This document shows, piece by piece, positions 7,693 to 58,625 of a DNA stretch of 64,000 nt. The notes under the pieces are model-generated. The model saw nothing but the letters and a program-made list of their open reading frames with translations. It was not told the DNA's origin and did not search any database. The DNA is from Rathayibacter sp. VKM Ac-2804 (GTDB taxonomy: Bacteria > Actinomycetota > Actinomycetes > Actinomycetales > Microbacteriaceae): contig NZ_CP047420.1 in the NCBI RefSeq assembly GCF_009866655.1, positions 3,348,001-3,412,000 of the forward strand. The letters run 5' to 3'. Numbering within the stretch: the stretch's first letter is position 1; each line of letters starts with the position of its first letter. The position numbers and the translations under genes are program-made.

Positions 7693-8613
7693 TCAGCCCG
7701 CGACGTGGAGGGAGATGCCGCCGCCGACCTCGGGCGTCGTCTCGTCGGCGACGAGCTCGGTCCAGCGGCGCAGCACGGCGGCGCCGGCCTCGTCGTTGAT
7801 CGCGCCGTCGACCACGAGGATCGGGTACGGCTTGTCCGGGACGCCCTCCGCGGGGCGCACGTCGACGTGGGCGACGTCGTAGGCGTGCTCGGACAGCCAG
7901 TCGGCCATCGCGTAGTCGCTGCGGGAGTCGCCGACCGTGCGCCAGCGCTGCGGGATCGGGCCGGTGGCGCCGAGCAGCTCGACGGCGCGCTGAGCGCCGA
8001 GGTCCTTGCCGAGGCGGTTCGACTCGATGTCGGTGGAGATCACGGTCGGGTCGATGCGGTACTCGACGGCGCCGGTGTCGTTCGGGTAGCGGATGCCGCG
8101 GCGCTCGACGCCGAGGCCGGCCGCGGTCATGATCTGCAGGGCGTCGGCGTCGAAGACGAGCTGGCGCTCGAGGTAGTCCTCGCTGGAGAGGTCGACGAGC
8201 TGCTCGGCCGAGACCATCGCGCGCTTGGTCTCGTCGAAGAAGACCAGGTCGTCGTAGTCCTCGCGGATCATCCGCTCGAGGTCGCGGGCGACGGCCTCCG
8301 GGATCGCGAGCGACTCGTCCACGATCGGCTCGGAGGTGCCGCGGTAGTCGACGGTGAACCAGACGGCGCCCTTCTCGCAGACGCAGACGATGCGCGCATC
8401 GGCCGAGACGCCGCGCTCGAGCAGCGACGGCAGCACCCGCTCGCGCAGGAACGCGTCGGAGCGGCCGGTGTTGAAGACGAGCGGGATGCCCGCGTTCGCG
8501 AGGGTGACGAGGTCGTCGGCGATCGAGGCGATGGCGATCGTGCGGCTGATCGGGCTGGCGATCGGCCCGTCGACGTCGAGGAGCAGGCCGAGCGGAGGTG
8601 TGGTGGAGGTCAT
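7693..8613 (-). CDS. HAD-superfamily hydrolase
   Basis: The 306-residue protein begins with LLLDVDGPIASP, HAD motif I with the nucleophilic Asp and the acid/base Asp. VFNTGRSDAF corresponds to motif II, and TVGDSRSDYAMADWL is the Mg-binding motif IV with its DSxxD pattern. The long insert between motifs suggests a C2-type cap, as in sugar phosphatases. The ATG at 8613 has GGAGACG directly upstream; an in-frame ATG at 8622 is less well placed. The substrate is not identifiable. A palindromic repeat lies just upstream. Confidence 0.82.
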   Translation of the reverse strand: MTSTTPPLGLLLDVDGPIASPISRTIAIASIADDLVTLANAGIPLVFNTGRSDAFLRERVLPSLLERGVSADARIVCVCEKGAVWFTVDYRGTSEPIVDESLAIPEAVARDLERMIREDYDDLVFFDETKRAMVSAEQLVDLSSEDYLERQLVFDADALQIMTAAGLGVERRGIRYPNDTGAVEYRIDPTVISTDIESNRLGKDLGAQRAVELLGATGPIPQRWRTVGDSRSDYAMADWLSEHAYDVAHVDVRPAEGVPDKPYPILVVDGAINDEAGAAVLRRWTELVADETTPEVGGGISLHVAG

Positions 8614-8651
8614 CGTCTCCATTCTGCCGTGCGCGCGCGTCCGGCCGTCCC

Positions 8652-8712
8652 CGCGAGATGCCACTTGTGCACGCTTTCGACGGCGTGTCGCGTGCACAAG
8701 TGGCATCTCGCG
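8652..8712 (-). repeat. palindromic element family 1, copy 1 (reverse orientation)
   Basis: Arms CGCGAGATGCCACTTGTGC and GCACAAGTGGCATCTCGCG form a perfect 19-bp stem around a loop of about 23 bases. The asymmetric loop is inverted relative to copies 2-4, so this copy has the opposite orientation. It lies between the HAD gene and the secreted-protein gene. Confidence 0.9.
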
Positions 8713-8724
8713 GCGGGGAGGAGG

Positions 8725-9297
8725 TCAGTCCGTGGTCAGGACGAGGGTGCGCTGCGTGAGGGTGCCGTCGGGGGACTCGACGGCGAGGGTGATCAGTGTC
8801 TCGGCGTCGCGGCAGGGGACGGAGAGGGCGGAGTAGCCGGTCACGGAGAGGTCGACGGGGTCGCCGGACTGCGCATCGGTCGTGCCGACGGCGAGACGGG
8901 CGGCGACGCCGCCCTCGGTCTGCCAGGAGAGCGCGACCGGGACGGAGGCGGTGCGGTCGCCGGCGCAGTCGATCGTCGCGGGCGAGGCGGTGAAGGAGAG
9001 GACGGCGGCGGCGGCGGATTCGGGGGCGGCCGAGGCGACGACTCCCTCGGTCGGGGAGGCGGCCGAGGGGGCGTCTGCGGCGGGGGCGGTCGTCTCCGCC
9101 GCGGGCCCGGTCGTCGCGGCCTCGGTGGGCGCGGTCGACGGGGCGGCGGCGGCCGAGGCGGAGGGGGCGACCGGGGTGGACGTCGGGGCGCCCGCGCCGT
9201 CGGCCGGGCGGACGAGGAGGACGATCGCGACGATCACGGCGACGAGGCCGAGGACCGCGAGGACGATCCCGAGGGTGCGGGCGGTACGGGGCGGCAT
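8725..9297 (-). CDS. membrane-anchored extracytoplasmic protein, unknown function
   Basis: The 190-residue protein has one N-terminal hydrophobic segment (about residues 8-29, TLGIVLAVLGLVAVIVAIVL), then a 65-residue linker almost entirely of Ala, Ser, Thr and Pro, then a beta-rich domain of about 95 residues with two cysteines (TIDCAGD and VPCRDAE) that could form a disulfide. This is a typical layout for an anchored cell-wall protein with an Ig-like head. GAGGAG precedes the ATG. There is no sorting motif. Its function is unknown; the neighbouring surface peptidase gene may be coincidental. Confidence 0.72.
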   Translation of the reverse strand: MPPRTARTLGIVLAVLGLVAVIVAIVLLVRPADGAGAPTSTPVAPSASAAAAPSTAPTEAATTGPAAETTAPAADAPSAASPTEGVVASAAPESAAAAVLSFTASPATIDCAGDRTASVPVALSWQTEGGVAARLAVGTTDAQSGDPVDLSVTGYSALSVPCRDAETLITLAVESPDGTLTQRTLVLTTD

Positions 9298-12507: not shown

Positions 12508-12648
12508 GCGGAGATCTTTCGTGTCGGAGGTCGGCGCGGACGAGGCTCCGCGCTCGCTCCTGCGTCATCGACCTCGAAGCAACGTGTGAACCCTCTCAGG
12601 AACCTAGGCCACCCGTGTTTCCGGCACGTGTCACGCCCGCCCCCCCCT

Positions 12649-12709
12649 CGCGAGATGCCACTTGTGCGCGCGACACGCCGTGAAAGGCGTGCACAAGTGG
12701 CATCTCGCG
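12649..12709 (+). repeat. palindromic element family 1, copy 2
   Basis: Arms CGCGAGATGCCACTTGTGC and GCACAAGTGGCATCTCGCG (loop GCGCGACACGCCGTGAAAGG and a few more bases) lie between the GntP stop codon and the M14 peptidase start. The orientation matches copies 3 and 4. Confidence 0.9.
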
Positions 12710-26182: not shown

Positions 26183-26192
26183 GCCGGACTGC

Positions 26193-26253
26193 CGCGAGAT
26201 GCCACTTGTGCACGCGACACGCCGTGAGAGGCGTGCACAAATGGCATCTCGCG
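26193..26253 (+). repeat. palindromic element family 1, copy 3
   Basis: Arms CGCGAGATGCCACTTGTGC and GCACAAATGGCATCTCGCG (one mismatch) lie between the convergent DUF5997 and Gfo/Idh genes. Confidence 0.9.
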
Positions 26254-26260
26254 GAGGCGG

Positions 26261-34792: not shown

Positions 34793-34805
34793 CCCCTCCC
34801 CTCCT

Positions 34806-34865
34806 GCGAGATGCCACTTGTGCACGCGACACGCCGTGTCCGGCGTGCACAAGTGGCATCTCGCG
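34806..34865 (+). repeat. palindromic element family 1, copy 4
   Basis: Arms GCGAGATGCCACTTGTGC and GCACAAGTGGCATCTCGC lie between the convergent oxidoreductase and GNAT genes. The loop (ACGCGACACGCCGTGTCCGGCGT) matches copies 2 and 3. Confidence 0.9.
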
Positions 34866-34880
34866 GCGGGGAGCAGGGCG

Positions 34881-55112: not shown

Positions 55113-55247
55113 TCCTTCCCCTCCCTCCCGGGGTGCGGTCGGCGACCGGCGGCTCGGCCGCGCTCGACGCGGGTCCACCCACGGTCGCGTCTTCGTGAGT
55201 TCCGAAGAGGGGTAGGTGGTTGTTCCTCAATGAGGGATCATATTCGT

Positions 55248-55364
55248 ATGGTCGAGGCGCCGGGCCCGGCCGCACCGCGAGGAACGGCGACGATGACATC
55301 GACACGAACGACCCCCTTCACCCTCTATCAGGTGCACGTGCGGGGTCAGTGGCAGGCCTGGTAG
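55248..55364 (+). CDS. small peptide, candidate precursor or leader of the ABC operon
   Basis: A 38-codon frame runs from ATG at 55248 (GAGGGA ten bases upstream) to TAG at 55362; an in-frame ATG at 55230 would give 44 residues. The peptide ends VHVRGQWQAW with two Trp residues near the C-terminus and has no hydrophobic core. It lies 27 bases before the first permease gene and in the same frame, so it could also be the severed N-terminus of that permease with an in-frame amber codon. Its codons (ACA, CGA, GGA, TAT) are unlike the neighbouring genes. I cannot assign a function. Confidence 0.45.
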   Translation: MVEAPGPAAPRGTATMTSTRTTPFTLYQVHVRGQWQAW

Positions 55365-55391
55365 AGCCGGAGCCCGACCATCGACACGACC

Positions 55392-56207
55392 GTGCCGTCG
55401 CGCTTCGCACTGGTCCTCACCGATCTGCGGTCGTCGTTGCGCTGGCCGCAGGCGCTCCTCGGTGTGATCCTCGTCGTCGGTCCGACCGCCCTCGGGCTGG
55501 CGGAGGTGGGCGGCGGTGTCTACCGCGACGAGCTGGACGTCTACTCGCAGTTCATGATCTCCCCGATGATCGTCCTCTTCCCCGTCTTCATCACGACGGC
55601 CTGCTGCAGCGGCACCGCTGCCGAGATCAGGAACAGGTTCGTCATCCTCGTCCGCGCGCGGACGGATCTCCGGTCCTACCTGACGACCCGGGTGCTCAGC
55701 GTCGCCCTCGGAGGATTCGTGCTCGGCTTCGTCGCCGCACTCCTTCCCGGACTGATCGCCTTCGGGATCTGGCCGGAGCTGGGTGCGCCCTTCATCGATC
55801 CGGTCGTGTACGGACTCGCACCGGACGAGGTGGAACGGAACGCCCTGGAGCGCGTGAACTACTCGCAGCTGCTCGCCTTCGGCTGGCCGGTGTACCTGAT
55901 CGGCTACTCCTCGGTGCTGGGCGCCTGGGGCGCGATCACGGCGATGGCCGGGGTGCTCGCACTGGTCGCACTGAAGAACCTGGGGCTGGCGATGGTGCTG
56001 CCCGCAGTGATCTTCTTCGTCGAGACGATGGCTGTCGCTCTGGTCGACCGGCCGCTTCTCGGATTCATGTACGGAGCCTTCCCGTTCGGTCTCGATCAGG
56101 CGCCGATCGGCATCATGGTCCTGCCGCTCGCGGTCGCTGGAGCCGCGACGGTTCTCGCCGCACGGCGGATCCTCGGTAGAGCCCAGCGACTCCCGGCGCT
56201 GACATGA
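55392..56207 (+). CDS. ABC-type multi-spanning membrane protein A
   Basis: The 271-residue protein has about six hydrophobic segments (WPQALLGVILVVGPTALGL, FMISPMIVLFPVFITTACC, TTRVLSVALGGFVLGFVAAL and others) and a soluble loop near residues 130-165. It resembles ABC-2-like permeases of peptide export or immunity systems only in layout; I find no family signature. The GTG at 55392 follows an in-frame TAG by 27 bases. Its stop overlaps the next gene by four bases. Confidence 0.75.
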   Translation: MPSRFALVLTDLRSSLRWPQALLGVILVVGPTALGLAEVGGGVYRDELDVYSQFMISPMIVLFPVFITTACCSGTAAEIRNRFVILVRARTDLRSYLTTRVLSVALGGFVLGFVAALLPGLIAFGIWPELGAPFIDPVVYGLAPDEVERNALERVNYSQLLAFGWPVYLIGYSSVLGAWGAITAMAGVLALVALKNLGLAMVLPAVIFFVETMAVALVDRPLLGFMYGAFPFGLDQAPIGIMVLPLAVAGAATVLAARRILGRAQRLPALT

Positions 56208-57673
56208 TCGCCTCGCTCTCCCGCCGTGTCCGCCTGCTGCTCGCCGGCTGGGCCCTCGCAGCTGCCGCCGCGTACTCGATCCACCAGCGGATGCTCTGGG
56301 CCGCGTCGGGTTCCTCGTTCGGATTCGTCGACCTGGCGATCGAAGTCGTGAACGACCCGCTCTTCGTCTGCTGCGGACTGGGAGCGCCCTGGTGCATCGC
56401 CTTCTTCCTGGCGTCGAGATCCCTCCCGCCGGAGGCGGTGTGCATCCGGGCCGGATCGCTCAGGAACGCTCTCCTCGTCCTCCTGCGCAGCGACGCGGCG
56501 AGCGCTGCGGTCGTCCTGTTCGGGGTGCTGACGACGTGCTGGGTGTGCTCGCTCGGGCTGGCGAACGACGTCGCGCGCGTGCCCGGATCGGTGAGTGCGC
56601 TGCTCGCGGACGTCGCGCTGCCCCCGCCCGTCGGAGTGCTGCTCCAGCTCCCGCTCCTCCTGCTCTTCCTCGCGACGATCGGGTCCCTCCTCTCCGCCTG
56701 CTGGGTGCTCTCGGGCGGGAGTGTCCTCGTCGGGGTTGCGGCGACGGTGCTGCTCGGCTGGTTCGCCGTCTCGGCGGCGGGGGGACTCCCGAGGGACTCC
56801 GCCGTCAGCTCGGCCTTCCTCTCCAGCTCGTCGCTCCATCTCGGGCGGCCGTTCGGCGTGCTGGGCGCCTTCGTCGTCCTGCTCTCGATCGAGGTCGTGC
56901 TCCTCGGCGCGATGCGGGTGCAGGACCGCCGGCTGTCCGGAGCGGCGCGGTCACGGGGTGCCGGATGGGCGGTGTACGTGCTCCTCCTCGGTTCGGTCGC
57001 ACTCGGACCGACGGGGCTCCGGTCGGCCGCAGAGGGGCTTCCGGCACCCGGGATCGAGGGGAGCGTCCTCGGTCCTCTCTTCGCGGGCCCTGTCGGCGCT
57101 CTCGCACCCACTCTGTTCTCCGTCCTCATCATCACCGGCTTCGCGCTGACCTGGCAGCTCAGTGAGCTCGATCCCCGACGCCCGATCCTCCGCTGCGAGC
57201 TGATCCGGTTCGGATCGAACGGCGCTCGGAATCGGCGGCTCGGCGCGGGGCTCCTCGCCCGCGCGCTCGGGGTGAGTGCGCTCGTCGCCGCTCTGGCCGG
57301 TGCCGAGGCGCTGCTTCGGGGCGCACCCGGCGAGCTCGCGTCCTTCGCCGACCCGGTGGTGGGGTTCCAGCTCCTGGTCAACGGAACGCTGCAGTTGATG
57401 CTGGTCGCGGCCGTCTCCTCCGCGTTCGCGCCGCTCGCCGGATCGGGTGCGCTGCCCGCCGCCTTCTCCGCCGGGCTGGCCTTCCTGCCGAGCAAGCTCC
57501 TCGAGGGCAACCCGCTCGCCGTTGCGGGCCTCTGGAGATGCGCAGGGGGCTGGCCGAGCGTCCTCCACGGGACGGCGCTGGCGCTGGGGAGCGCCTGCAT
57601 CGTCCTCGTCGCAGCAGGCATCGCGTCTCGACTGGCCGAGAGGCATCCCAGAACAGAAAGAGGTCGCCCATGA
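56204..57673 (+). CDS. ABC-type multi-spanning membrane protein B
   Basis: The 489-residue protein has ten or more hydrophobic segments (starting LLLAGWALAAAAAYSIHQRM, FLATIGSLLSACWVLSG, VLGAFVVLLSIEVVLLGAM, ending ALALGSACIVLVAAGIA) and several conserved-looking short loops. It is about twice the size of protein A. I do not recognise the family. It is translationally coupled at both ends (ATGA overlaps), so it very probably works with protein A and the ATPase. Confidence 0.75.
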   Translation: MIASLSRRVRLLLAGWALAAAAAYSIHQRMLWAASGSSFGFVDLAIEVVNDPLFVCCGLGAPWCIAFFLASRSLPPEAVCIRAGSLRNALLVLLRSDAASAAVVLFGVLTTCWVCSLGLANDVARVPGSVSALLADVALPPPVGVLLQLPLLLLFLATIGSLLSACWVLSGGSVLVGVAATVLLGWFAVSAAGGLPRDSAVSSAFLSSSSLHLGRPFGVLGAFVVLLSIEVVLLGAMRVQDRRLSGAARSRGAGWAVYVLLLGSVALGPTGLRSAAEGLPAPGIEGSVLGPLFAGPVGALAPTLFSVLIITGFALTWQLSELDPRRPILRCELIRFGSNGARNRRLGAGLLARALGVSALVAALAGAEALLRGAPGELASFADPVVGFQLLVNGTLQLMLVAAVSSAFAPLAGSGALPAAFSAGLAFLPSKLLEGNPLAVAGLWRCAGGWPSVLHGTALALGSACIVLVAAGIASRLAERHPRTERGRP

Positions 57674-58308
57674 CGAACGCCATCACGGTCGAGGGTGTGT
57701 CCAAGAGCATCCGCGGGCATCTGCTCTACAGCGACGTGGCGTTCGAGCTGCGCCGAGGCGGTCTGTACGCCCTCCTCGGCCCGAACGGCTCCGGGAAGTC
57801 GGTCCTGCTGCGACTGCTCTGCGGATTCCTGAGGCCGGACTCGGGCAGCATCAGCGTCGACCCGGCGATCTCGCCGGAAGGGCGGACGTTCCCGGACGGC
57901 TTCGGGATCACGATCGACGGCCCCGCCTACATCGCAGGCCTCTCCGCGGAGCAGAACCTCCTGCGACTGGCCGCGATCCGCAAGCGCATCGGGATCGAGG
58001 AGATCCGCGCGACGCTCGCCTCGGTACGTCTGCAGAGCACGGGGCGCTCAGCGGTCCGCACCTTCTCCTCGGGGATGAAGCAGAAGCTGTCCCTCGCGCA
58101 GGCTCTGATGGAGGACCCGAAGGTGCTCCTCCTCGACGAGCCGTTCACCGCGCTCGACACGGAGAGCGTCGCGGTCGTCAAGGACCTCCTCCGCGAGCGG
58201 GTGGCCGAGGGGGTCACCGTCCTCCTGACGATGCACGGCGAGGCGGACTTCCTCGCCGAGTGCGACGGCGTCCTCCGGATCGAGAACCGCACGATCTCGA
58301 TGCTCTGA
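57670..58308 (+). CDS. ABC transporter ATP-binding protein
   Basis: The 212-residue ATPase has Walker A GPNGSGKS, signature FSSGMKQKLS, Walker B VLLLDEPFTALD and a switch His in LTMHGEADF. It resembles bacteriocin-immunity and ABC-2 exporter ATPases (BcrA/NatA type). Its ATG overlaps the stop of membrane protein B. It ends the three-gene operon that begins at 55392. The substrate is probably a peptide or lipid, but this is inferred. Confidence 0.92.
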   Translation: MTNAITVEGVSKSIRGHLLYSDVAFELRRGGLYALLGPNGSGKSVLLRLLCGFLRPDSGSISVDPAISPEGRTFPDGFGITIDGPAYIAGLSAEQNLLRLAAIRKRIGIEEIRATLASVRLQSTGRSAVRTFSSGMKQKLSLAQALMEDPKVLLLDEPFTALDTESVAVVKDLLRERVAEGVTVLLTMHGEADFLAECDGVLRIENRTISML

Positions 58309-58322
58309 CGACCGGTCGTCTC

Positions 58323-58383
58323 CGCGAGATGCCACTTGTGCCCGCCTTTCGCGGCGCGTCGCGCGCACAAGTGGCATCTCGCG
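58323..58383 (-). repeat. palindromic element family 1, copy 6 (reverse orientation)
   Basis: Arms CGCGAGATGCCACTTGTGC and GCACAAGTGGCATCTCGCG; the inverted loop is like copy 1. It lies 14 bases past the ATPase stop codon, in the convergent gap with tRNA-Met. Confidence 0.9.
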
Positions 58384-58406
58384 GAGGGGGTGCGGCGGGG
58401 ACGACG

Positions 58407-58439: not shown

Positions 58440-58446
58440 CTCGATG

Positions 58447-58520
58447 TAGCGGGAGCGGGACTTGAACCCGCGACACCACGATTATGAGCCGTGTGCTCTA
58501 ACCACCTGAGCTACCCCGCC
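58447..58520 (-). tRNA. tRNA-Met (CAT), elongator type
   Basis: The minus strand gives acceptor GGCGGGG/TCCCGCT (G-U at the first pair), D-arm GCTC/GAGC, anticodon stem CACGG/TCGTG with loop CTCATAA, and T-arm GCGGG TTCAAGT CCCGC. The 1-72 pair is G-U, not the C-A mismatch of the initiator, so it is an elongator Met (or, less likely, a lysidine Ile) tRNA. Confidence 0.93.
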
Positions 58521-58553
58521 GCACGTTTCCGGAGGCTGGCCTGCCGGGAACGG

Positions 58554-58625
<72 letters not shown>

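What the first reader, a model, noticed from the sequence alone, without database searches (positions are those of the whole stretch)
55230..58308. Tiny Trp-rich peptide gene in front of an unfamiliar two-permease ABC operon
A 38-44-codon frame ending VHVRGQWQAW sits 27 bases before a tightly coupled operon of two membrane proteins of unfamiliar sequence (271 and 489 residues) and one BcrA/NatA-like ATPase. A small peptide plus asymmetric permeases plus an ATPase is the layout of bacteriocin, pheromone or immunity systems. The peptide uses codons rare in neighbouring genes (ACA, CGA, TAT), which suggests recent acquisition. That the peptide is the substrate is inference.
Basis: partly seen in the sequence, partly recalled or inferred. 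Interest (0 to 1): 0.72.

Follow-up and report, generated by a model that had tools for sequence, protein, structure and literature searches.

The report
Broken secreted-protein gene before ABC transporter
The supposed tiny peptide gene is the leftover end of a larger gene for a small secreted protein, which in related bacteria is intact and sits beside the same transporter genes; the pair looks like an uncharacterised bacterial weapon with its self-protection pump, here with the weapon lost and the pump kept.

Summary
The frame exists, but it is not a peptide gene. In Rathayibacter sp. VKM Ac-2857 (L021) the same place holds an intact 134-residue gene for a protein with a signal peptide and nearly the same ending. 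Against it the window has an in-frame internal deletion of 330 bp that keeps the ribosome site, the start (55293) and the last 18-19 codons: a 23-codon remnant.

The intact protein belongs to a family without a Pfam or NCBIfam model (ten members scanned), found in Actinomycetota and Bacillota. In 23 of 23 loci examined it or its remnant lies beside the same short permease; in the 21 of these held long enough, a long membrane protein (split in two genes in two loci) and an ATPase follow. In four loci on separate branches the secreted gene is broken while the ABC genes stay open; 12 further permease loci lack it. Against this, two loci have an intact secreted gene with a frameshifted or shortened ATPase.

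Most likely the secreted protein is a Sec-exported bacteriocin-like factor and the ABC transporter protects the producer; the window is a non-producer that kept protection. The remnant is shown; the function is inferred. Lactococcin 972 membership failed.

The parts
55293..55364 (+). Remnant of the secreted-protein gene: original start codon, first codons and last 18-19 codons, joined in frame (23 codons and stop)
   Evidence: Alignment to the intact gene L021:7569-7973; 58/60 bases identical from 55305; profile match to model positions 103-132, E=2.6e-4
55303..55308 (+). Deletion junction; 330 bp present in L021 are missing here; a 4-base direct repeat (CGAA) is present at both ends in L021
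55195..55292 (+).
   Evidence: aligned leader; in-frame stop in L021 just before the position of 55248
55392..56207 (+). Short permease P1, 271 aa, 6 TM segments by simple hydropathy, GTG start
   Evidence: homologues in 17 of 398 family genomes, own included
56204..57673 (+). Long membrane protein P2, 489 aa, about 10 TM segments by simple hydropathy, ATGA overlap with P1; in two relatives (L046, L050) its place is taken by two half-sized genes
   Evidence: no family match
57670..58308 (+). ABC ATPase P3, 212 aa, ATGA overlap with P2
   Evidence: PF00005, 95 bits; best named subfamily TIGR03740 lantibiotic protection ATPase, 128 bits, below its cut-off 309.75
58320..58389 (.). ~66-nt near-perfect palindromic repeat at the 3' end of the operon; crossover point of an inversion relative to L021

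Best explanation
The operon is one copy of an uncharacterised system: a small secreted protein with a Sec-type signal peptide, plus an ABC transporter of two membrane proteins and one ATPase. Shown by sequence: in the window the secreted-protein gene is destroyed by an in-frame internal deletion that leaves a 23-codon remnant, while the three ABC genes are open. Inferred: the secreted protein is a bacteriocin-like antibacterial factor exported by Sec; the transporter does not export it but expels it from, or keeps it off, the producer's own membrane or cell-wall target. A strain that loses the factor but keeps the transporter remains protected from producing neighbours, which would explain why the transporter outlives the factor in separate lineages. 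The remnant itself most likely has no function beyond leaving the operon's leader translated.
For: Remnant. Signal peptide: hydrophobic N-terminus with an AxA motif (A24, A26) invariant in 22 aligned members; in the wider alignment of 76, A26 stays at 90% or more, A24 does not. Family: 18 proteins at E<=0.001, then 73 at E<=10 (worst 3.1e-5) when searched with 22 sequences, including entries named Anoxybacillus, Exiguobacterium, Halalkalibacterium, Thalassobacillus, Bacillus cereus group and Brachybacterium, named hypothetical or uncharacterized where named; no Pfam model at its cut-off in ten members. Linkage: 23 of 23 examined loci with the secreted gene or a remnant have P1 next to it. Plasmids: 5 such records, one a 9.97-kb mobilizable plasmid. 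Asymmetric decay: secreted gene broken with ABC genes open in 4 loci (window; L050, L068; L071; P2 checked, in L050 as two overlapping half genes), which the permease tree puts on separate branches (4 changes, at least 3 forced by starred branches); 12 permease loci without it. ABC genes under constraint between window and L021: dN/dS 0.36, 0.31, 0.26. Precedent: in the pneumococcal lactococcin-972-like scb locus 157 of 571 genomes keep only scbBC and lack the bacteriocin gene (PMC11796350, section 5).
Against: No activity data for any member. Counterexamples to the asymmetry: Planococcus plasmid pPS15-2 has an intact secreted gene but an ATPase split over several frames, from decay or sequencing error; in L048 the secreted gene is intact and the ATPase frame is only 181 codons, ending about 45 model positions early. 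The split P2 of L050 could be a frameshift instead of two genes, although L046, with an intact secreted gene, has the same split. Any secreted protein that depends on its ABC partner would show the same asymmetry. The dN/dS values cover both lineages and do not isolate the time since the deletion. Some permease loci without the secreted gene may be other ABC systems: two, in one genome, carry a PadR-like frame upstream (L042, L043; recognised by eye), one has P1 alone (L044) and one (L056) is a very long branch. In the scb precedent strains with only scbBC were inhibited in plates (section 12 heading and legend, seen in passages) and the function of B and C is unverified. The fold could not be predicted.
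Confidence: 0.58

Rival explanations
1. The secreted protein is a cell-surface or signalling factor, not a toxin, and the ABC transporter processes, inserts or senses it; the window has lost this function and the ABC genes are awaiting decay.
For: No activity data; members are named hypothetical or uncharacterized; the ABC genes evolve faster than neighbouring glpX and the anthranilate-synthase-like gene (dN/dS 0.26-0.36 against 0.10 and 0.01); a frameshifted or shortened ATPase beside an intact secreted gene in two loci.
Against: Four separate losses leave the ABC genes open; plasmid carriage and patchy distribution (8 of 398 family genomes) fit an accessory competition trait better.
Confidence: 0.27
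2. The ABC transporter exports or matures the secreted protein, in the manner of a dedicated bacteriocin exporter.
For: Constant linkage; NCBIfam scores P3 also against the putative bacteriocin export subfamily TIGR03608 (L_ocin_972_ABC) at 81.6 bits, below its cut-off of 254.85.
Against: The protein carries its own Sec-type signal peptide with an AxA site; an exporter would have no use in the 4 loci without an intact cargo; no peptidase domain was reported in P3.
Confidence: 0.1
3. The short frame is a working gene: a Trp-containing peptide that is the substrate, pheromone or leader peptide of the operon.
For: The frame is open with a ribosome-binding-like GAGGAA before 55293; a second, separate locus (L071, G470) also keeps an in-frame 45-codon remnant with start and C-terminus.
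Against: It is the end of a larger gene in L021; no hydrophobic stretch for export (best 11-residue hydropathy 0.3); two other broken loci have internal stops instead; 10 permease loci show no trace of it.
Confidence: 0.05

Closest known systems
Lactococcin 972-like bacteriocin loci (TIGR01653; pneumococcal scbABC)
   Same: Small protein with a Sec signal peptide, next to genes for a predicted immunity protein and a transporter protein; strains that lost the bacteriocin but keep the other genes are common in scb (157 of 571; PMC11796350 section 5).
   Different: Ten secreted proteins of this system give no TIGR01653 match or one below the cut-off and the family aligns to 12 Lcn972-family proteins only over the signal peptide; the ATPase is below the cut-off of the Lcn972-associated subfamily TIGR03608; here two membrane proteins lie beside the ATPase, where scb has ScbB and ScbC.
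LanFEG lantibiotic self-protection ABC transporters
   Same: One ATPase plus two different membrane proteins; the ATPase's best-scoring named subfamily is TIGR03740, lantibiotic protection.
   Different: Score 128 bits against a cut-off of 309.75; P1 and P2 match no permease model; P2 is about twice the usual permease length (usual length recalled); the partner is a 134-residue Sec-type protein, not a modified lantibiotic.

Membership tests
Lactococcin 972 family (TIGR01653) | Score above the curated cut-off of 32.1 bits | tested here: not met
   No TIGR01653 match for three members; of seven more only P0029 was listed, 16.5 bits
Lactococcin 972 family (TIGR01653) | Homologous mature domain | tested here: not met
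   Profile-profile alignment of 76 against 12 sequences (12 of the 15 loci held; two of the 12 below the family cut-off) gives probability 93.4 but covers 31 columns, all signal peptide
Lactococcin 972 family (TIGR01653) | Sec-type signal peptide | tested here: met
   Hydrophobic N-terminus and invariant AxA in 22 members, by sequence only
Lactococcin 972 family (TIGR01653) | Antibacterial activity | not testable with these tools
LanFEG lantibiotic protection ABC | ATPase above the TIGR03740 cut-off | tested here: not met
   128 bits, cut-off 309.75
LanFEG lantibiotic protection ABC | Permeases matching curated permease models | tested here: not met
   No permease model hit for P1 or P2 of the window or for eight homologous membrane proteins, E<=1
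LanFEG lantibiotic protection ABC | Two permeases and one ATPase in one operon | tested here: met
LanFEG lantibiotic protection ABC | Lantibiotic precursor and modification genes nearby | tested here: inconclusive
   None of three upstream neighbours matches such a family; the rest of the window was not annotated
The system described here | Secreted-protein gene or remnant beside P1 | tested here: met
   Window remnant and 22 other loci

The most novel reading that the evidence does not exclude
The in-frame remnants are not mere debris: in two separate lineages (the window and L071) the deletion removed the signal peptide core and most of the protein but kept the ribosome site, the start and the conserved C-terminal end. 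These short cytoplasmic peptides may have been selected, for instance as a C-terminal ligand that engages the transporter or sets its expression, which would be a new way to turn a secreted weapon into a protection-only module.
Probability: 0.07. Interest if true: 0.75.

Novelty: new variant of a known kind. Interest (0 to 1): 0.48.

Why it matters
A family of small secreted proteins tied to a dedicated ABC transporter occurs in two phyla and on plasmids, and the ten members scanned meet no Pfam or NCBIfam model at its cut-off. If it is an antibacterial protein with its protection pump, it is a new group of Sec-exported bacteriocins, and the window is a natural protection-only mutant. It is also a caution: a short open frame before an ABC operon can be the tail of a lost gene.

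Tried and rejected
Rejected: a 38-44-codon peptide gene; membership of the lactococcin 972 family; membership of LanFEG by curated models; PADLOC defence systems (no match at E<=0.01 for P1, P2 or two secreted proteins; only cross-matches of the ATPase to 17 models, best mad3 at 87.6 bits, not followed up).

A selenocysteine reading of the internal TGA in L050 was considered, because it falls in a conserved Cys column; it was dropped because the TGA in L068 lies elsewhere, in the signal peptide. No selenocysteine machinery was searched for.

Led nowhere: no solved structure matches the secreted family by sequence; P1 alone found only three close protein clusters, and the genome-contig scan only L021; no match in the phage collection; two further secreted proteins against plasmids gave no match or only the same four Priestia records; eight literature searches listed nothing whose title or abstract start describes this family, so it is not claimed to be unpublished. 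Of these papers only PMC11796350 was opened (section 5 and passages); the others were seen as search listings only. Weak secreted-family matches in G120 (3), G079 (1), G516 and G603 were not followed up.

Rows left out: alignment A3 holds 76 of the 81 secreted-family proteins held (P0008, P0020, P0082, P0084, P0085 left out as near-copies or fragments); A4 holds 12 of 15 lactococcin-972 loci; the permease tree leaves out L073 (same plasmid as L074) and L099-L101, which were fetched later.
Full report
WHAT IS THERE. The window lies in one contig of 4,087,733 bases (G000); its nearest named relative here is Rathayibacter sp. VKM Ac-2857 (L021). The frame 55230-55364 and the three genes after it are present as described, with 27 bases between the stop and the GTG at 55392 and ATGA overlaps between the following genes. 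Open frames of 38 codons or more are common in this GC-rich DNA (374 in the window), so the frame by itself means little.

WHAT THE FRAME IS. In L021 the same permease (91% identical) is preceded by an intact 134-residue gene, L021:7569-7973, whose protein has an N-terminal signal peptide and ends in LRTTPFTVYQVHMRGQWQAW. Aligning the two regions shows a shared leader, a shared start region with small differences and a shared 3' end, with 330 bp of L021 missing in the window; the missing piece is bounded in L021 by the 4-base repeat CGAA. From 55305 to the stop 58 of 60 bases are identical. The reading frame is kept, so the window has a 23-codon remnant, 55293-55364. The remnant has no hydrophobic stretch. 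Intact close relatives exist in entries named R. festucae (P0007, 18 member sequences; P0008).

THE FAMILY OF THE SECRETED PROTEIN. A profile of seven members found 8 of 398 genomes of the same taxonomic family, the window's own (its second copy) included. Searching 5.8 billion proteins with it gave 18 proteins at E<=0.001, and with 22 sequences 73 proteins at E<=10, among them entries named Anoxybacillus, Exiguobacterium, Halalkalibacterium, Thalassobacillus, Bacillus cereus group, Brachybacterium and Microbacterium, where named as hypothetical or uncharacterized protein. No Pfam or NCBIfam model reaches its cut-off in the ten members scanned; a few chance-level matches and one weak lactococcin_972 match (16.5 bits, cut-off 32.1) were listed. 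An AxA motif at the end of the signal peptide is invariant in 22 members, and V125 and G129 near the C-terminus are shared; in 76 members only G129 is invariant.

THE SYSTEM. P1 homologues occur in 17 of 398 genomes of the family (20 matches). Of these 20 loci, 10 have the secreted gene or a remnant directly upstream and 10 have none detectable by a profile scan of six frames. Searching instead with the secreted protein, all 9 full-length matches, six further strong ones and two more lie beside P1. All four Priestia plasmid records found and one Planococcus plasmid have both; in four of these five the secreted gene is divergent from P1, in pHJT3_2 it is codirectional. In all, 23 of 23 examined loci with the secreted gene or a remnant (the window included) have P1 next to it; two of them (L096, L097) were held too short to see more. 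In the other 21 a P2-like membrane protein follows: 17 were checked, where 15 have one frame of 468 to 510 codons and two (L046, L050) have two half-sized overlapping frames instead; four plasmids have an annotated gene of that size. P2 thus looks like a fusion of two half permeases, though it is too divergent to be linked by sequence in many loci. The ATPase is present in the 21, split over frames in Planococcus and short in L048 (181 codons). In 19 of the 20 P1 loci an ATPase follows; L044 has P1 alone. Weak matches to the secreted profile in G120, G079, G516 and G603 were not followed. Two further plasmids, from Parageobacillus and Arthrobacter, have P1 without a detectable secreted gene in the stretch read, which makes 12 such loci.

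LOSS OF THE SECRETED GENE. It is broken in four loci whose ABC genes are open: the window (internal deletion), L071 of G470 (a separate in-frame internal deletion with a 45-codon remnant), L050 of G360 (internal stop in the mature part; P2 as two half genes, which could also be a frameshift) and L068 of G553 (internal stop in the signal peptide). A tree of 32 P1 proteins puts the four on separate branches (4 changes, at least 3 forced by well supported branches). The presence of the secreted gene is scattered over that tree (8 changes; 37 of 500 shuffles as low). The reverse, an intact secreted gene with a damaged ATPase, was seen clearly on Planococcus plasmid pPS15-2 and possibly in L048. 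Between window and L021 the ABC genes show dN/dS 0.36, 0.31 and 0.26, against 0.10 for glpX and 0.01 for the anthranilate-synthase-like gene: constrained but fast. This cannot be assigned to the time after the deletion.

HOW IT PROBABLY WORKS. Shown: linkage, signal peptide by sequence, repeated loss of one partner. Inferred: a factor that leaves by Sec and a transporter that protects its maker. The parallel is the lactococcin-972-like scb locus, where 414 of 571 genomes have scbABC and 157 only scbBC (PMC11796350, section 5); [quoted passage not shown]

WHAT IT IS NOT. The secreted proteins are not members of TIGR01653 by score, and profile comparison aligns only the signal peptides. The ATPase scores best against the lantibiotic-protection subfamily TIGR03740, far below its cut-off, and the permeases match no model. 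It works like these systems; membership is not supported.

LIMITS AND CHANGES. Bacillota chromosomal contexts were not fetched; only plasmids were seen. TM counts are simple hydropathy counts. On checking, the short ATPase of L048 and the split P2 of L046 and L050 were added; the confidence was lowered from 0.60 to 0.58, and the first rival raised from 0.25 to 0.27, for the second possible counterexample.

Noticed in passing
window 8651-8728, 12644-12709, 26192-26256, 34797-34869, 58320-58389; L021 7368-7438, 10926-10995, 11938-12008: A ~66-nt near-perfect palindrome recurs; the copy at 58320 folds into a very stable hairpin. The operon is inverted relative to its flanks between window and L021, with a crossover at copies of it.
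   Followed up: partly
L021 11064-11921: A 285-codon gene between two palindromes in L021 has no DNA match in the window; it resembles siderophore-interacting proteins by eye only.
   Followed up: no
L046 2673-4099; L050 first half to 8213, second half 8210-8902 (reverse-complement coordinates for L050): P2 is replaced by two half-sized overlapping frames in two loci, which suggests that P2 is a fusion of two half permeases.
   Followed up: partly
L038 (G000:C1:1322000-1336000): The same genome holds a second, intact copy of the system: secreted protein, P1, P2 and P3; its P1 is 27% identical to the window's over the matched part.
   Followed up: partly
L089 (G000:C1:3884393-3884611): A lactococcin-972-like frame, 25.7 bits, below the family cut-off, elsewhere in the same genome.
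   Followed up: no
L080 (G134:C1:1198596-1198949): A lactococcin 972 family gene above the cut-off lies about 7 kb from a P1 locus that lacks the secreted gene.
   Followed up: no
window 58446-58625: tRNA-Met and tRNA-Thr genes follow the operon, a common setting for variable DNA (recalled).
   Followed up: no
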